Part shown: in pieces, positions 29,424 to 37,025 of the stretch
Position numbering within the stretch: position 1 is the first letter of the stretch
Layout of the letters: the number at the start of each line of letters is the position of its first letter
Source of the DNA: Chloroflexota bacterium
GTDB lineage: Bacteria; Chloroflexota; Ktedonobacteria; Ktedonobacterales; JACDGC01
Length of the DNA: 38,959 bases
NCBI GenBank assembly: GCA_021778805.1
Contig: JAJYBV010000024.1
Coordinates: forward strand, 1,236 to 40,194
Direction: 5' to 3'
Position numbers and translations under genes: made by a program
Notes under the pieces: generated by a model
Told to the model about the DNA's origin: nothing
Database searches by the model: none
What the model saw: only the letters and a program-made list of their open reading frames with translations

Positions 29424-29687
29424 ATGTCGAAAGCATTGTCACGAAATGTGTATTTAGTGTCTTTAGTGCTTATAATTGTTTCTACAGTTCTAATTTATTC
29501 AAAAGCAAGCCCTACTGTTGGCGCTTTGCTTTATTTCGTTGGCGCTCTTGGAGCTATAGTTTCATGGATAGGGGCGTTGATAAAAACAGCGCAATTATCT
29601 CGCTGGGGATGGTTTGTTGGTATTTTAATAACTGGCGGTATTGGCTTTTTAATCTATGTTTTCGCTGGCCCTACAGAGAAGCGCTAA
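29424..29687 (+). CDS. Small membrane protein (87 aa), hypothetical
   Basis: Preceded by AAAAAGGGG; about 3 TM; followed by a terminator. Confidence 0.7.
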   Translation: MSKALSRNVYLVSLVLIIVSTVLIYSKASPTVGALLYFVGALGAIVSWIGALIKTAQLSRWGWFVGILITGGIGFLIYVFAGPTEKR

Positions 29688-29710
29688 GCCGCTTTGGCTT
29701 TAATAATAAG

Positions 29711-29742
29711 AGTTCGGTGTGCTCTACGCCGGACTTTTTTTA
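29711..29742 (+). terminator. Rho-independent terminator
   Basis: AGTTCGG...CCGGACT stem followed by TTTTTTT. Confidence 0.8.
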
Positions 29743-29927
29743 TTTTCTGCGGTAAATATCCGTGGTTTTACCTGAATTTCCGAACTTTTCCATAACTTGT
29801 GTGCGCCTGCTTTCATGATACAATACACATGAATGAAATACGCCGCTTTGCGTTGTTCAACGTTATTCGTTTGCAGCGGCTGAAATCGATGGCAGATTCG
29901 ACATTACCTTACGGGGAGCGCACAAGC

Positions 29928-31373
29928 ATGATTGCTTCAGAAATTATTCATTTATTTGAATCGGCAGTTGGCCCCATGCGCGTTATCACTCATCCCGCCG
30001 AGCGCAAAGCTTTCGCTTCTGATGCGCTGCTGCATTATCATGAACCCCCGGAACTGGTTGTTTTCCCGGAAACAACTGAACAAATAAGCTCTATCGTTAA
30101 AATCTGCAATACCCATCACATACCGTTTACGCCGCGCGGTTCGGGAACCGGTCTTTCAGGCGGTGCAACCCCATCTCCGGAATCTGTGGTGATTGCCACT
30201 GCTAAAATGCGGAAAATACACCGAATCGATATCGCAAATCGGCTGGCGGTGGTGGATCCCGGTGTGATTAATAGCGACATCACTAAAGCTGTGGCGTCTG
30301 CCGGATATTTTTATGCGCCGGATCCTTCCAGTCAATCGGTTTCTACAATTGGCGGCAATGTTGCTGAAAACGCCGGCGGAATACACTGTTTTAAATATGG
30401 ATTTACCGTAAACCATATTCTTGGCGCACAAATAGTACTGGGCAATGGTGATATTGTTGAAGTTGGCGGTGAGGCAATGGATATGCCCGGTTATAATTTG
30501 CTCAGCGTCATTGTGGGGTCTGAAGGCACATTGGGTATAGTTACCTGCGTAACGGTAAGGCTGACTGCACAGCCGCAAAGCATTGTAACTGCGCTGGTTC
30601 CTTTCGCCTCCATGGAATCTGCCGGCGCGGCGGTTTCAGCCATTATAGCCGCAGGTATTGTTCCAGCCGCAATCGAACTGATGGATCAGCTGACGCTGCA
30701 AGTTTGTGAAAACACGATTCACGCCGGATACCCCGAAAACGCAGCGGCAATTTTGCTGGTTGAATTAGATGGGCCGCAAGCCGAAGTTGAAGCTAGAATA
30801 GCGGATGTTGCCAAAATTTGCCGAAACTATGAAGCGCTGAATTGGAAGATTGCCACTTTACCCGCGGAACGCGCGCTTTTGTGGAAAGGCCGCAAAGCTG
30901 CGTTTGCTGCGCTGGGACAGCTTGGCGCGCACTTATTTTTGCATGATGGTGTTGTTCCCCGCACAAAACTGCCGGAAGCGCTGAAACGTTTGACAGATGT
31001 TGGCCGCCGTTCCGGTTTGTGGATTGCCACGGTTCTGCACGCTGGAGATGGCAACTTGCACCCGGTAGTGCTGTATAACGATGATCAGGAGGCGCTGGCG
31101 GAACAAGTTGCCGCAGATATTTTAACTATGTGTGTTGAATTAGGCGGCAGCATAACAGGCGAGCATGGCGTTGGCCTAGATAAACGTGAGTTTATGAATG
31201 TGATGTTTACCGAAAATGATATGGCGGCGCACCAAAAGTTGCGTTTGGCGTTCGACCCATTAGGCATCAGTAATCCGGGGAAAATATATCCTGCGCCAAA
31301 TATGTGCGGGGAAGGCGCAAAAAAATACAAACAACATCCGCTTGAACAAAACGGAACTATTACCAGATTGTGA
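29928..31373 (+). CDS. glcD: FAD-linked oxidase, glycolate oxidase subunit GlcD-like (start chosen at GGGGAG-preceded ATG; longer ORF from 29799)
   Basis: PRGSGTGLSGGATPSPESVVIATAKM, YAPDPSSQSVSTIGGNVAENAGGIHCFKYG, GEHGVGLDKREFM. Confidence 0.92.
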   Translation: MIASEIIHLFESAVGPMRVITHPAERKAFASDALLHYHEPPELVVFPETTEQISSIVKICNTHHIPFTPRGSGTGLSGGATPSPESVVIATAKMRKIHRIDIANRLAVVDPGVINSDITKAVASAGYFYAPDPSSQSVSTIGGNVAENAGGIHCFKYGFTVNHILGAQIVLGNGDIVEVGGEAMDMPGYNLLSVIVGSEGTLGIVTCVTVRLTAQPQSIVTALVPFASMESAGAAVSAIIAAGIVPAAIELMDQLTLQVCENTIHAGYPENAAAILLVELDGPQAEVEARIADVAKICRNYEALNWKIATLPAERALLWKGRKAAFAALGQLGAHLFLHDGVVPRTKLPEALKRLTDVGRRSGLWIATVLHAGDGNLHPVVLYNDDQEALAEQVAADILTMCVELGGSITGEHGVGLDKREFMNVMFTENDMAAHQKLRLAFDPLGISNPGKIYPAPNMCGEGAKKYKQHPLEQNGTITRL

Positions 31374-31390
31374 TTTTTTCAAAAATTTTA

Positions 31391-31698
31391 TTATCAGGTG
31401 TTTTAAGTCAGCGACCCCATGCCTAAAGGCAGGGGTATGTGAAAGCTTACTCCGATGCTGACCAGATCCCCTGGAAACAGGGAGCCGTTATCAGGAAGTG
31501 TTCAAATTCGCACCTTCAGATGGCATCTCAGTCTGAAGCTCTGCAAGTTCAACGTTAAACAGGTTGATGGGGTGTCAAAGCCAGTGCGTTGAGCATAGTA
31601 CCGCCTGCTAACCCGATCGAGGGAACCATGTACCGCCAGTGGCAACACTGGTGTGAGGCCAATTACGGCCCCTTCGCAAGAAGGAAAGGAAAAAACAA
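31391..31698 (+). ncRNA. omega RNA (HEARO-type) of the IscB element, including a presumptive 16-nt guide at about 31391-31406
   Basis: Directly 5' of iscB. Stems: GTCAGC(31407)/GCTGAC(31462); CCCTG-GAAA-CAGGG; CTTCAGA/TCTGAAG; CCAGTG-GCAA-CACTGG; CCTTC-GCAA-GAAGG just before the iscB start. Confidence 0.85.
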
Positions 31699-33048
31699 AT
31701 GTCACGAGTCTTTGTTGTCGATATGCAACAGCAGCCACTCACTCCCTGCACACCAGCACGGGCGCGCTGGCTGTTGACGCAAAAGAAAGCCGCTATCTGG
31801 CGCAGATACCCTTTCACCATTATCGTGAAGGGAGCCAAGCCAGATGCCCTTGTCCCTGAAATGGTGTGCAAGCTCGATCCAGGCAGCGAAACCACCGGTA
31901 TTGCCGTTCTCAACCAACAATCGGGAGAAGTGCTCTGGGCAGGGGAATTGACGCATCGCGGGCAAGCTATCAAAGAACGGCTGGACCAACGCCGAGGCTG
32001 TCGAAGAAGCCGATGCCAGCGCCATACACGCTATCGAGAGCCGCGATTTCTCAATCGGACTCGTCCCAAAGGATGGCTGCCACCATCGGCGCAAAGTCGA
32101 GTAGCAAATATCCATACCTGGGTCAATCGCATTCGCCTATCCTGTCTTATTGCTTCATTGAGTATGGAGTTGGTAAAATTCGATACCCAATTGATGCAGC
32201 ATGCGGAAATTAGTGGTGTGGAATATCAGCAAGGAACCCTGGCAGGATATGAAACCAGGGAATACTTGCTCGAAAAATGGAACCGAGCCTGTGCCTATTG
32301 TGGGGCAACCCATCTTCCTTTGCAAATAGAGCACATCGTCCCCAAATCGCGTGGGGGAAGCAATCGCATTGCCAATCTTGCCATCGCCTGTGAAGCCTGC
32401 AACCTGAAGAAAGGCGCCCACACCGCCGAAGCATTTGGGTTTCCTAATGTGCAGCAGCAAGCACAACAGCCATTGAAGGATGCGGCTGCGGTCAACGCCA
32501 GCAGATGGGCTGTGTGGCGTGTGTTGACCCAAACAGGGTTGCCCGTTGAAACAGGCAGTGGGGGATTGACCAAATTTAATCGAACCCATCGCAATCTGCC
32601 AAAGACCCATTGGCTGGATGCCAGTTGTGTCGGCCACTCCACGCCGGAAACCCTCCACTGGAAGCAGGTACATCCGTTCCTGATAACAGCAATGGGACGG
32701 CATAGTCGGCAGATGTGTCGAACGAATGCGTTTGGAGTTCCAGACAAAGCGCCCAAAGCAACCAGTGTCGTTGGAGGGTTCCGAACCGGAGACATGGTCA
32801 AAGCAGTCGTGCCCGAAACGAGTAAAAAAGCAGGGGTGTATGTGGGTCGGATTGCCATCCGGGCAACAGGCTACTGCAATATCAAAACGGGTACCGAAAC
32901 TATTCAAGGCATCCATGTTCGCTATTGCACGGCCCTGCATCGAATGGACGGGTATTCCTATTCTTTCAAGAAAGAGAGGCTCACCTGACGGTGAGCAGGC
33001 ATTTCCTCCCCATTCCGCAAGGAAGGGGTCTTCATGCCTGAGCTTTAA
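31407..33048 (+). mobile_element. IscB-carrying IS200/IS605-related element (no tnpA inside)
   Basis: omega RNA + iscB + 3' hairpins (GCTCACC-TGAC-GGTGAGC 32979-32996; CCCC-a-TTCC-GCAA-GGAA-GGGG 33008-33028). It lies between glcD and glcE. Boundaries approximate. Confidence 0.75.
31699..32988 (+). CDS. iscB: RNA-guided endonuclease IscB (PLMP, split RuvC, Arg-rich bridge helix, HNH)
   Basis: PLTPCTPARARWLLTQKKAAIWRRYPFTIIVKG; RuvC-I KLDPGSETTGIAV; bridge RRGCRRSRCQRHTRYREPRFLNRTRPKGWLPPS; RuvC-II SMELVKFDTQLMQ; HNH CAYCGATHLPLQIEHIVPKSRGGSNRIANLAIACEACN; RuvC-III HWLDASCVG. Confidence 0.96.
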   Translation: MSRVFVVDMQQQPLTPCTPARARWLLTQKKAAIWRRYPFTIIVKGAKPDALVPEMVCKLDPGSETTGIAVLNQQSGEVLWAGELTHRGQAIKERLDQRRGCRRSRCQRHTRYREPRFLNRTRPKGWLPPSAQSRVANIHTWVNRIRLSCLIASLSMELVKFDTQLMQHAEISGVEYQQGTLAGYETREYLLEKWNRACAYCGATHLPLQIEHIVPKSRGGSNRIANLAIACEACNLKKGAHTAEAFGFPNVQQQAQQPLKDAAAVNASRWAVWRVLTQTGLPVETGSGGLTKFNRTHRNLPKTHWLDASCVGHSTPETLHWKQVHPFLITAMGRHSRQMCRTNAFGVPDKAPKATSVVGGFRTGDMVKAVVPETSKKAGVYVGRIAIRATGYCNIKTGTETIQGIHVRYCTALHRMDGYSYSFKKERLT

Positions 33049-34275
33049 ATGAATGTAAACGCTGAACAAGAGTTATTCGCGCGGTTTGCGAATATTGTAA
33101 CCGAACCATCTGAAAAAGACGCTATTTTAGGTGTTGCGCCAAAAGTTATTGTATCACCGGCGAATACCGAACAGATTTCCGCAATTTTAGCTTTTGCCGC
33201 AGAAAATAATCTTGCCGTTATACCACGCGGCGCCGGCGCACAAATGGCTATTGGGTCTGCTCCATCTCGCGCAGATATTCTTTTGGATTTATCGAAAATG
33301 AATACCATCATTGCATATGAGCCGGGAGATATGACAATTACTGCACAGGCCGGAACTTCTATTGGAGCCATTCAGCGCGCGGCCGCAGAGTATCGGCAGT
33401 TTTTAGCAATAGATCCCGATGTGGAGGAAAGCGCAACGATTGGCGGTATTGCCGCGGTTGGGATAAACGGTACACGCCGAATGAAATATGGCGGCGTATA
33501 TGATCAGATACTCGGCGCGCAGTTTGTGTTAGCTGATGGAACGATTGCCCGCGCAGGCGGCAAAATTGTGAAAAACGTTGCAGGATATGATATCGCGCGT
33601 TTGCTGTGCGGATCTTTGGGTACCTTGGCGGTGTTAACCGAGGTAACATTCCGGTTGCAGCCAAAACCGCCGTTCTCACGCTGGATTGGTGTTCCCTCGC
33701 CAACTTTAGAGGCTGCGCAAACCGTTGTTCAGCTTATACGCCAGTCGCAGTTATCACCATCTGCAATTGAGGTTGTGCCGGCGGCAGATGGCTTTGTAAC
33801 CGCGCTGTCTTTTGAATACACTGCGGCGGCAATTCAAGAGCAAGTGACGGCGCTGCGACAGCTTTTAGGCAAAAAATATGGCGCATGGTATATTGCTAAA
33901 CCCAATTTTTCATTGCCCAAAAACGCTTTTGCGCTGAGAATTTCTGCGCCGCCTTCGCAAACCCTCCCCATTTTGCAAAAGGTCCTGGAAATATCTGAGC
34001 CTATGCATATCGATTGGGTGGCGCATGTGGGATTTGGCGCAATTGAAACGTCGGTGAATGCCGCGCCAGACGCCGTTGTGCGCCTTACCGGGCAGCTGCG
34101 GCCGGTTTGTGAAGCTGCCGGCGGCGCGCTGGTTGTTTCCGGAGATGGTTTAAGCGCACTGCCAGAGCTGGATCCTTGGGGAACAGTTAGTTCCGCGCCG
34201 TTGATGCGCTCGGTTAAATCTTATTATGATCCTAAATCTATTTTGAATCCCGGCCGATTTGTCGACGGAATCTAA
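33049..34275 (+). CDS. glcE: FAD-binding oxidase, glycolate oxidase subunit GlcE-like
   Basis: PANTEQISAILAFAAENNLAVIPRGAGAQMAIG, KIVKNVAGYDIARLLCGSLGTLAVLTEVTFRL. Confidence 0.88.
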   Translation: MNVNAEQELFARFANIVTEPSEKDAILGVAPKVIVSPANTEQISAILAFAAENNLAVIPRGAGAQMAIGSAPSRADILLDLSKMNTIIAYEPGDMTITAQAGTSIGAIQRAAAEYRQFLAIDPDVEESATIGGIAAVGINGTRRMKYGGVYDQILGAQFVLADGTIARAGGKIVKNVAGYDIARLLCGSLGTLAVLTEVTFRLQPKPPFSRWIGVPSPTLEAAQTVVQLIRQSQLSPSAIEVVPAADGFVTALSFEYTAAAIQEQVTALRQLLGKKYGAWYIAKPNFSLPKNAFALRISAPPSQTLPILQKVLEISEPMHIDWVAHVGFGAIETSVNAAPDAVVRLTGQLRPVCEAAGGALVVSGDGLSALPELDPWGTVSSAPLMRSVKSYYDPKSILNPGRFVDGI

Positions 34276-34298
34276 ATTAATTGCAAAGGCAATGCGCT

Positions 34299-35618
34299 AT
34301 GCAAACTGAAAAGAATGACTCAACACAGCATTTGGTTCACAAACCGGATAAAGAATTGCTGAACGCATGCATACATTGCGGATTTTGCCTCACTTCGTGC
34401 CCCACCTATGTGTTGTGGGGTGATGAATCGGATTCGCCACGCGGCCGTATTCAATTTATGAAAATGCTTGCCGATGACGAGTTGCAGCCCGATAGGCAGA
34501 TGACACAGCACTTTGATAGCTGTTTAGGCTGTGAAGCTTGCGCAACCGCGTGTCCTTCCGGCGTGCAGTATGGCGCGCTGATTGAGGAAACTCGCGCGTA
34601 TGTTGCAAAAACCGTACCGCGGCGCTTGCCAGACGCCGCGTATCGCGCGCTGCTTTTCAGTCTATTTCCTTACCCCAAAAGATTGCGAGCGATGAAGCCG
34701 TTTTTATGGCTTTACCAAAAAAGCGGAGTTAGCGCAGCCGTTCGTTCGCCGGTTGGAAAAGTGCTGCCGCGGCGTCTGCGCGCCTTAGACGCGGTTTTAC
34801 CTTCGGTGCGGCTGCGGCATGACCAAATACCAGTTATCACTCCGCCTAAAACTGCGCGGCGTTTGCGCGCCGGCATGATAACCGGTTGTGTGCAAGACGC
34901 ATTTTTTAGCGATGTCAATGCTGCAGCTGTTCGTGTGCTTACCGCGGAAGGTGTGGAAGTGATTACCCCGCCAAATCAAGGCTGCTGTGGCGCGCTGCAC
35001 ATACACTCCGGACGCGAAGAAGGCGCTATGGCAATGGCGCGCAGTATGATAGATATTTTTGAGCGCGCGCAAGTAGATGTTATCGTTATTGATTCCGCCG
35101 GATGCGGATCTACTCTAAAAAGGTACGATCGCTTGCTGCAAGGTGACGCGCAATATGCCGAACGCGCAAAAGCGTTTGTCGCCAAGGTAAAAGATATTTC
35201 GGAGGTTTTAAGCGAATTATCTGTAACGGTGCCGCGCCATCCCATACCGTTTAAAGTAGCCTATCACGACGCCTGCCATCTTAGCCATGCGCAGAAAATT
35301 CGCGAAGCGCCGCGAAATCTGTTAAAAACAATTCCCCAATTAGAGGTATTGGAAATACCGGAAGGCGATATCTGCTGTGGCAGCGCCGGAATCTATAACC
35401 TAACCGAGCCGGTTGCCGCTGAAGAACTGGGAATTAGAAAAGCGCGGAATATCCTTGCAATTCAACCTCAAGCATTGGTTGCATCTAACCCGGGATGCCT
35501 GCTGCAAATAAGCGCATCACTGAAAAAAGAAGGTATTCGCATACGTACCTATCATCCTATTGAGTTGGTAGATATGTCTATTCGCGGCGCGCTGCCAAAA
35601 GAACTATCTGCGCCATGA
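34299..35618 (+). CDS. glcF: Glycolate oxidase iron-sulfur subunit GlcF-like
   Basis: CIHCGFCLTSCPTY and CLGCEACATACPSGVQYG 4Fe-4S motifs; GCCGALHIHSG and CCGSAGIYNLTEP cysteine-rich domains. Confidence 0.93.
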   Translation: MQTEKNDSTQHLVHKPDKELLNACIHCGFCLTSCPTYVLWGDESDSPRGRIQFMKMLADDELQPDRQMTQHFDSCLGCEACATACPSGVQYGALIEETRAYVAKTVPRRLPDAAYRALLFSLFPYPKRLRAMKPFLWLYQKSGVSAAVRSPVGKVLPRRLRALDAVLPSVRLRHDQIPVITPPKTARRLRAGMITGCVQDAFFSDVNAAAVRVLTAEGVEVITPPNQGCCGALHIHSGREEGAMAMARSMIDIFERAQVDVIVIDSAGCGSTLKRYDRLLQGDAQYAERAKAFVAKVKDISEVLSELSVTVPRHPIPFKVAYHDACHLSHAQKIREAPRNLLKTIPQLEVLEIPEGDICCGSAGIYNLTEPVAAEELGIRKARNILAIQPQALVASNPGCLLQISASLKKEGIRIRTYHPIELVDMSIRGALPKELSAP

Positions 35619-35730
35619 AATAGCAAAAGCTATTGTGCGCGGCAAAATGCTTGATTGGCGCCATATTTGCGCTTATTCATAAATGTAATTTCCTATGTGG
35701 AAAACATGGTTAGCGTATACTAATAGTAGT

Positions 35731-35766
35731 GGCAAACTATCTGCATTGTTTGCCGGGCTTTTTGTG
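35731..35766 (+). terminator. Putative terminator downstream of glcF
   Basis: GGCAAAC (35731-35737)/GTTTGCC (35748-35754) followed by GGGCTTTTTGTG. Confidence 0.5.
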
Positions 35767-35786
35767 AAGGATCCTGGAACCGGGGT

Positions 35787-37025
35787 ATGGATATGCGAAC
35801 TGCGCGCGTGAAATCATCTATTTTTACACGGCGATTTATTCAAACATTGAATGTTATATTATCGCTGATATTAGTATTTTTATTGGCAGCGGCCGGATAT
35901 TTAATTTATTATGGCGTAGTTCATAATGATTTTGGGGCAACTTCCGGGCAAAACGCCATAAAATCAACGGTAAATGGCGCTGTTAACACTGCGCCGGCTA
36001 CAGCAACGCTGCCGGCGTCTAACAGCGCTTTGGTAAAATTTGTGTCTGGTAAAACGTATGGGGCCGGTGTTGCTTCGCTGGCGTGGGATCCTGCCGGGCA
36101 AAATTTAGCGGTGGGTGAAAACCCTGCGATATACGGCGGCAGCGGAAATGGCGGTGTGCTGCTATACCATCAAAATGGCTCCAGCGAGCGGCTAACGGGA
36201 TTTGAAGGATTTCAGGCGCCCGGTAGTTTAGTGTGGTCGCACAGTGGCGCCATGTTGGCTGCCGGCGGTCATTTAACATTAATTATTTGGCAGCCTGCCA
36301 TAAGCGCGGCTCCATTTAAAATTACGCTTCCGTCTGATCCCGGCTCTAATATCTATGTGTTTAATGTAAAAACCGGCGCCTTAGTTCATACATATCCTGA
36401 TACTATATTTTTGCCGTTTGGCTTCGCTGAATGGGGGCAGGGCGGCGCAATTTCTGCAAATACCGTTTTGCCCGCAAATCCGCTGAACCCCATAGAGCCG
36501 GCTTTTGCCCTTTGGGGTCCGGAGCAGGGAGCCGGAGTGTATTATGACGCTTCGATGGGCAAAACCATGATTGGCTCTTCTTCAAGCGATCGCGTGGCGC
36601 ATTCCGCACTTATCCGCTGGTCGCCGCAAGATGATTATATTGCGTGGGGATATCCTGCTTTACCGGTAAGTTCGGTAGAGTCAACCGCAAGCAGCCAAAA
36701 TACCGGACAATTTCAGGCAATTTTATCGCCAAATGCTTTATTTGCGGCTATGGTTACCAAAATTGGCGCAGCCAAATCAGTGGATTCAATATATATTACA
36801 CCTTCGGCGATTGGTTCTTTTGCTATGACGATGGCTTTTTCTGCCAAAGGCGCATCTTTGACGCTTTATAATTCAGCTAACGGATCCGAAATTACTTCCA
36901 TCGGAGATCCGAGCGGATTCAGCGACGCAACTGCGTGTAGTTTTAGCTGGACAAATTTGCCGCAACTTACTTTTGCTGCTGTTACCGGAAAGCAGATCGC
37001 GGTGGTGTATAGCGCGCCGGCGTAG
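35787..37025 (+). CDS. Membrane-anchored WD40/beta-propeller-like hypothetical protein
   Basis: N-terminal TM; recurrent VASLAWDPAGQNLAVGE, SLVWSHSGAMLAAGG, IRWSPQDDYIAWG blade-like motifs. Confidence 0.6.
   Translation: MDMRTARVKSSIFTRRFIQTLNVILSLILVFLLAAAGYLIYYGVVHNDFGATSGQNAIKSTVNGAVNTAPATATLPASNSALVKFVSGKTYGAGVASLAWDPAGQNLAVGENPAIYGGSGNGGVLLYHQNGSSERLTGFEGFQAPGSLVWSHSGAMLAAGGHLTLIIWQPAISAAPFKITLPSDPGSNIYVFNVKTGALVHTYPDTIFLPFGFAEWGQGGAISANTVLPANPLNPIEPAFALWGPEQGAGVYYDASMGKTMIGSSSSDRVAHSALIRWSPQDDYIAWGYPALPVSSVESTASSQNTGQFQAILSPNALFAAMVTKIGAAKSVDSIYITPSAIGSFAMTMAFSAKGASLTLYNSANGSEITSIGDPSGFSDATACSFSWTNLPQLTFAAVTGKQIAVVYSAPA

What the first reader, a model, noticed from the sequence alone, without database searches (positions are those of the whole stretch)
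31391..33048. Complete-looking IscB plus omega RNA element with all nuclease motifs
Seen: PLMP, RuvC-I Asp, Arg-rich bridge, RuvC-II Glu, HNH and RuvC-III Asp are all present. About 290 nt upstream fold into a closing stem GTCAGC/GCTGAC and several GNRA-capped hairpins up to the iscB RBS. Established: IscB proteins are omega-RNA-guided nucleases encoded in IS200/IS605-like elements (HEARO RNAs) and are Cas9 relatives. It looks active, and its guide can be read from the insertion site.
Basis: partly seen in the sequence, partly recalled or inferred. Interest (0 to 1): 0.8.

Follow-up and report, generated by a model that had tools for sequence, protein, structure and literature searches.

The report
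Ordinary intact IscB–omega-RNA transposable element
A bacterial chromosome carries one apparently intact jumping-gene element that encodes a small RNA-guided DNA-cutting protein (IscB, a relative of Cas9) and its guide RNA, inserted exactly between the ribosome-binding site and the start codon of a glycolate-oxidase-type gene; the element is of a well-known kind, and the precise landing spot is the only mildly unusual part.

Summary
Window 31407–31632 matches the Rfam HEARO model over its full length (117 bits, gathering score 83). It is followed by a 429-codon iscB (31699–32988) with every RuvC and HNH catalytic residue that 124 relatives share. Empty sites in relatives fix the ends of sister elements to the base. 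The left end is GTCA. The right end is a hairpin plus AGCTTTAA, followed by ATGA, the presumed TAM, which is also the start codon of a glcE-like gene. Joining the flanks restores TTATCAGGTGTTTTAA|ATGA, a Shine–Dalgarno sequence six bases before the start, so the guide spells glcE's own ribosome-binding region. Corrections: the "PLMP" motif reads PLTP; one bridge-helix arginine universal in 124 relatives is Cys106; no tnpA lies nearby. Activity is plausible but not shown. The kind is already known (IscB/HEARO, OMEGA), and the genome's order is rich in it. Extra observation: 14 of 50 related elements with an ATG-type TAM sit between a Shine–Dalgarno sequence and an open frame, against 56 of 1181 control ATGR sites.

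The parts
31391..31406 (+). predicted 16-nt guide segment (chromosomal left flank; contains the AGGTG Shine-Dalgarno sequence of the glcE-like gene)
   Evidence: element left end falls at GTCA in multi-copy relatives whose upstream flanks all differ; exact and unique in the own genome; 16-nt length from knowledge of other IscBs
31407..31632 (+). omega RNA / HEARO scaffold (RF02033)
   Evidence: cmscan 117 bits, full-length model
31407..31698 (+). structured leader from element left end to the iscB start, with GNRA-capped hairpins
   Evidence: fold z-score -3.06
31699..32988 (+). iscB, 429 aa: PLMP-like domain (PLTP), RuvC-I D60, Arg-rich bridge (R106C), RuvC-II E157, HNH H212/N226/N235, RuvC-III H304/D307, C-terminal domain
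32996..33040 (+). right-end hairpin: arms CAGGCAT (32996-33002) and ATGCCTG (33034-33040), with inner CCCC/GGGG and a GCAA loop
   Evidence: same position and shape in many relatives
33041..33048 (+). right-end tail AGCTTTAA, last bases of the element
   Evidence: boundary transferred from empty/occupied site comparisons of sister elements
33049..33052 (+). presumed TAM / transposase target ATGA; coincides with the ATG start codon of the glcE-like gene
33049..34275 (+). glcE-like FAD-binding subunit gene whose Shine-Dalgarno sequence is displaced by the element
   Evidence: Pfam FAD_binding_4; operon with a 0-90 nt gap in most relatives
29886..31373 (+). glcD-like FAD-linked oxidase gene upstream of the insertion (listed ORF starts at 29799)
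   Evidence: Pfam FAD-oxidase_C

Best explanation
This is a 1642-bp non-autonomous IS200/IS605-type element made of an omega RNA and iscB. Its left-end transcript starts with chromosomal sequence from the insertion site, which becomes the guide; the HEARO scaffold follows, then the iscB message (inferred from the anatomy and from studied IscBs). IscB bound to this RNA would cut the uninterrupted site, TTATCAGGTGTTTTAA followed by ATGA, which is the ribosome-binding region and start codon of the glcE-like gene. The occupied chromosome is spared because the element now separates guide-matching DNA from the TAM. Cutting sister chromosomes that lost the element, or never had it, would let repair copy the element back. 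Mobilisation would need a TnpA supplied from elsewhere. Shown here: RNA family, protein family, intact catalytic residues, element ends by homology with sister elements, and the site restored by joining flanks. Inferred: transcription, guide length, cleavage, TAM requirement and retention by cutting.
For: HEARO at 117 bits over the full model. RRXRR and HNH domains and PDB IscB chains. Catalytic residues invariant in 125 sequences. Left end at GTCA and right end after a hairpin in multi-copy relatives. Joined flanks of sister elements match uninterrupted DNA in related genomes, mostly at 94-97%, with junction flank|ATGG exactly. In the window the joined flanks give AGGTG-6 nt-ATG, and relatives' glcD-glcE genes mostly lie 0-90 nt apart, against 33 nt here without the element. 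No exact second copy of the guide target remains in the genome. Amino-acid change is strongly constrained: dN about 0.29 with saturated dS against relatives.
Against: Cys106 replaces an arginine found in 124 of 124 relatives, and three more conserved sites differ; 4 such departures against a median of 1. No tnpA in the window, and the genome's Y1_Tnp matches are mostly contig-edge fragments on other contigs. No expression or cleavage data. The window's own empty site was not found, because relatives' glcE genes are only 31-45% identical in protein.
Confidence: 0.88

Rival explanations
1. The element is a recent but already decaying copy: omega RNA and iscB are recognisable, but the protein no longer cuts well because of the bridge-helix change R106C and the other changes at conserved sites.
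For: C106 at a 124/124 Arg column, plus V43, A131 and V347; departures in the upper sixth of the family (20 of 125 have four or more).
Against: All catalytic residues and the full frame are intact; other full-length members have 5-7 departures; the HEARO RNA scores well over the gathering threshold.
Confidence: 0.3
2. The element is kept because the host uses it, for example as an RNA-guided regulator of the glcE-like gene, rather than as a selfish retention device.
For: The guide equals the glcE ribosome-binding region and the element lies in the operon.
Against: Its target no longer exists uninterrupted in the genome; the nuclease residues are intact, unlike TldR-type regulators; other elements of the family sit at unrelated genes.
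Confidence: 0.04
3. It is an unrelated HNH homing endonuclease beside a chance structured leader.
For: HNH domain only as a generic feature.
Against: Full-length HEARO match, RRXRR domain and IscB structural matches, conserved element ends.
Confidence: 0.01

Closest known systems
IscB / HEARO OMEGA systems (KraIscB-1, OgeuIscB, MG35-1)
   Same: 5' HEARO RNA (RF02033), RRXRR, split RuvC with inserted HNH, guide placed 5' of the scaffold; MG35-1-type enzymes are active dsDNA nucleases with a programmable 5' spacer (PMC9755519)
   Different: PLTP instead of PLMP; Cys at a bridge-helix Arg universal among 124 relatives; presumed TAM ATGA; 429 aa
Ktedonobacterales IscB family (for example Ktedonosporobacter rubrisoli, L004)
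   Same: 55-68% protein identity, same left-end GTCA, right-end hairpin and RTGR junction
   Different: Single full copy in this genome; up to dozens in the large Ktedonobacterales genomes
IS200/IS605 transposons with TnpB
   Same: ends with subterminal hairpins, no target duplication, insertion next to a short fixed motif
   Different: RNA-guided protein is Cas9-like IscB with omega RNA at the 5' side; no TnpA encoded here

Membership tests
IscB / HEARO (OMEGA) | HEARO/omega RNA directly 5' of the ORF | tested here: met
   RF02033, 117 bits, 66 nt before the iscB start
IscB / HEARO (OMEGA) | split RuvC with catalytic D, E, D and inserted HNH | tested here: met
   D60, E157, H212, N226, N235, H304, D307 invariant in 125 sequences; Pfam HNH
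IscB / HEARO (OMEGA) | N-terminal PLMP domain | tested here: met
   domain present but motif is PLTP; family mostly PLNP/PLDP; RRXRR 4-179
IscB / HEARO (OMEGA) | Arg-rich bridge helix | tested here: met
   present, but Cys106 replaces an Arg found in 124 of 124 relatives
IscB / HEARO (OMEGA) | guide from the 5' flank, TAM on the 3' flank | tested here: met
   by anatomy and by sister elements' empty sites; not by assay
IscB / HEARO (OMEGA) | no CRISPR array beside it | tested here: met
   no regularly spaced repeat in 29500-35800
IscB / HEARO (OMEGA) | RNA-guided dsDNA cleavage | not testable with these tools
   needs biochemistry
IS200/IS605 insertion sequence | hairpin ends and insertion next to a fixed short motif without target duplication | tested here: met
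   (sister elements); window by homology
IS200/IS605 insertion sequence | own Y1 transposase TnpA | tested here: not met
   none on the window's contig; Y1_Tnp matches lie on other contigs; most HEARO loci likewise lack it (PMC9755519)

The most novel reading that the evidence does not exclude
IscB elements of this clade preferentially come to rest between a gene's Shine-Dalgarno sequence and its ATG, because the insertion motif and TAM (RTGR, mostly ATGR) doubles as a start codon; some carry a replacement Shine-Dalgarno sequence at their right end that keeps the downstream gene translated. The guide then spells ribosome-binding sites. The window's element is a clean case without an obvious replacement sequence.
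Probability: 0.4. Interest if true: 0.45.

Novelty: new member of a known kind. Interest (0 to 1): 0.28.

Why it matters
It adds a clean, fully delimited IscB element with a readable guide and presumed TAM, useful as a candidate nuclease and as a natural test of the retention model. The start-codon landing pattern, if it holds, would help explain how large Ktedonobacterales genomes tolerate dozens of such elements, and would give a simple prediction for where they insert.

Tried and rejected
A DNA-level empty site for the window itself could not be found: relatives' glcE genes are too diverged, so gap lengths and sister elements were used instead. A search for a second guide target in the own genome gave only hits with two mismatches, no more than the reversed-pattern control. 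The only complete Y1_Tnp-like gene in the genome (L065) lies between ordinary chromosomal genes and by eye lacks the usual HUH motif, so it was not accepted as the mobiliser. The HNH match on C57 is a short stretch at 34% identity and was not counted as IscB. Literature searches for KraIscB TAM data or for start-codon insertion by such elements found nothing usable in the held library. Structure prediction was not run, since sequence matches to solved IscBs were already strong.

Full report
What is there. The window carries one full-length HEARO RNA, 31407–31632 on the + strand, 117 bits against a gathering score of 83 and the only Rfam match in 38,959 bases. The leader to the iscB start (31407–31698) folds at −101.8 kcal/mol; only 1 of 200 dinucleotide shuffles folds as well. 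Against the same-genus relative (L039), 12 predicted pairs change on both sides and remain paired (only two sequences, and the structure was predicted from them). iscB follows at 31699–32988, 429 aa, with RRXRR and HNH domains and matches to solved IscB structures.

Is the protein intact? In an alignment with 124 relatives, RuvC D60, E157, H304 and D307, HNH H212, N226 and N235, and four Cys (198, 201, 231, 234) are identical in every sequence. The N-terminal motif is PLTP, not PLMP. The bridge is Arg-rich, but position 106 is Cys (TGC), where all 124 others have Arg; positions 43, 131 and 347 also depart from columns at least 95% conserved. Four departures put it among the top 20 of 125 (median 1). 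Amino-acid change is slow relative to silent change (dN about 0.29–0.30 against L036, L037 and L039, dS 2–4 and saturated), which is the history of the lineage, not proof that this copy works.

Where does the element end? Multi-copy relatives have unrelated upstream sequences up to the same GTCA, and a right-end hairpin followed by a short tail and RTGR. The RTGR was used to place the cut, so the base counts are partly built in. Independent evidence comes from joined flanks of six sister elements searched in related genomes. For L142, L156, L167 and L148 the empty site reads left flank followed directly by ATGG, mostly at 94–99% identity, so the tail belongs to the element and ATGR belongs to the site. 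Transferred to the window, the element is 31407–33048, 1642 bp.

The insertion site. Joining the flanks gives ...TTATCAGGTGTTTTAA|ATGAATGTAAACG...: AGGTG, six bases, then the ATG of the glcE-like gene (33049). The glcD- and glcE-like neighbours lie mostly 0–90 nt apart in relatives without the element, against 33 nt here without it. The guide thus copies the glcE ribosome-binding region, and the presumed TAM is its start codon. The guide sequence occurs once exactly in the own genome.

Wider pattern. The genome is in the same order as Ktedonosporobacter rubrisoli (G044 and L004 come from the same 11,340,617-base record), and IscB is abundant there, up to 28 listed matches per genome. Of 68 distinct elements with readable ends, 50 have an ATG-type TAM. 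Of these, 23 open a frame of at least 80 codons (46%; control ATGR sites in flanks 22.6%), 23 have a Shine–Dalgarno match of at least 4 bases in the left flank (46%; control 15.6%), and 14 have both (28%; control 4.7%, Fisher P 2e-7). The sites in one genome are not fully independent, the open-frame test is not an annotated start, and selection against insertions inside genes could produce the whole effect. In L007, L044, L048 and L133 the element tail itself ends in GGAGGT or GAGGT just before ATGR, which would replace the lost Shine–Dalgarno sequence; the window's tail does not.

How it probably works. From knowledge of IscB systems: the omega RNA carries the left-flank guide, IscB cuts the uninterrupted site beside the TAM, and repair from a copy that holds the element restores it; a TnpA from elsewhere moves it. 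PMC9755519 reports RF02033 hits in 65% of the 5' regions of such ORFs, that TnpA is usually absent nearby, and that reprogrammed HEARO nucleases cut DNA. None of this was tested for the window's copy.

Verdict. Interest is modest; the start-codon landing pattern is the part worth following.

Noticed in passing
L063 (G000:C42:1-2099), L061 (C142), L064 (C18), L062 (C57): A second HEARO/IscB family in the same genome: one copy runs into a contig end within iscB; two are omega-RNA-only miniatures that keep the RNA, what looks like the last codons of iscB and a right-end hairpin; each has a different flank as guide. The miniatures could use an IscB in trans.
   Followed up: partly
L007, L044, L048, L133: Right ends finish with GGAGGT/GAGGT a few bases before the ATGR of the insertion site, as if supplying a replacement Shine-Dalgarno sequence.
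   Followed up: partly
L065 (G000:C107:7976-11323): Y1_Tnp-like gene (66.7 bits) between ordinary chromosomal genes; by eye the usual HUH motif is absent, so it may be a repurposed or inactive transposase relative.
   Followed up: no
L066-L069, L071: Fragments of IS200-type transposase at contig ends suggest repeated copies that broke the assembly.
   Followed up: no
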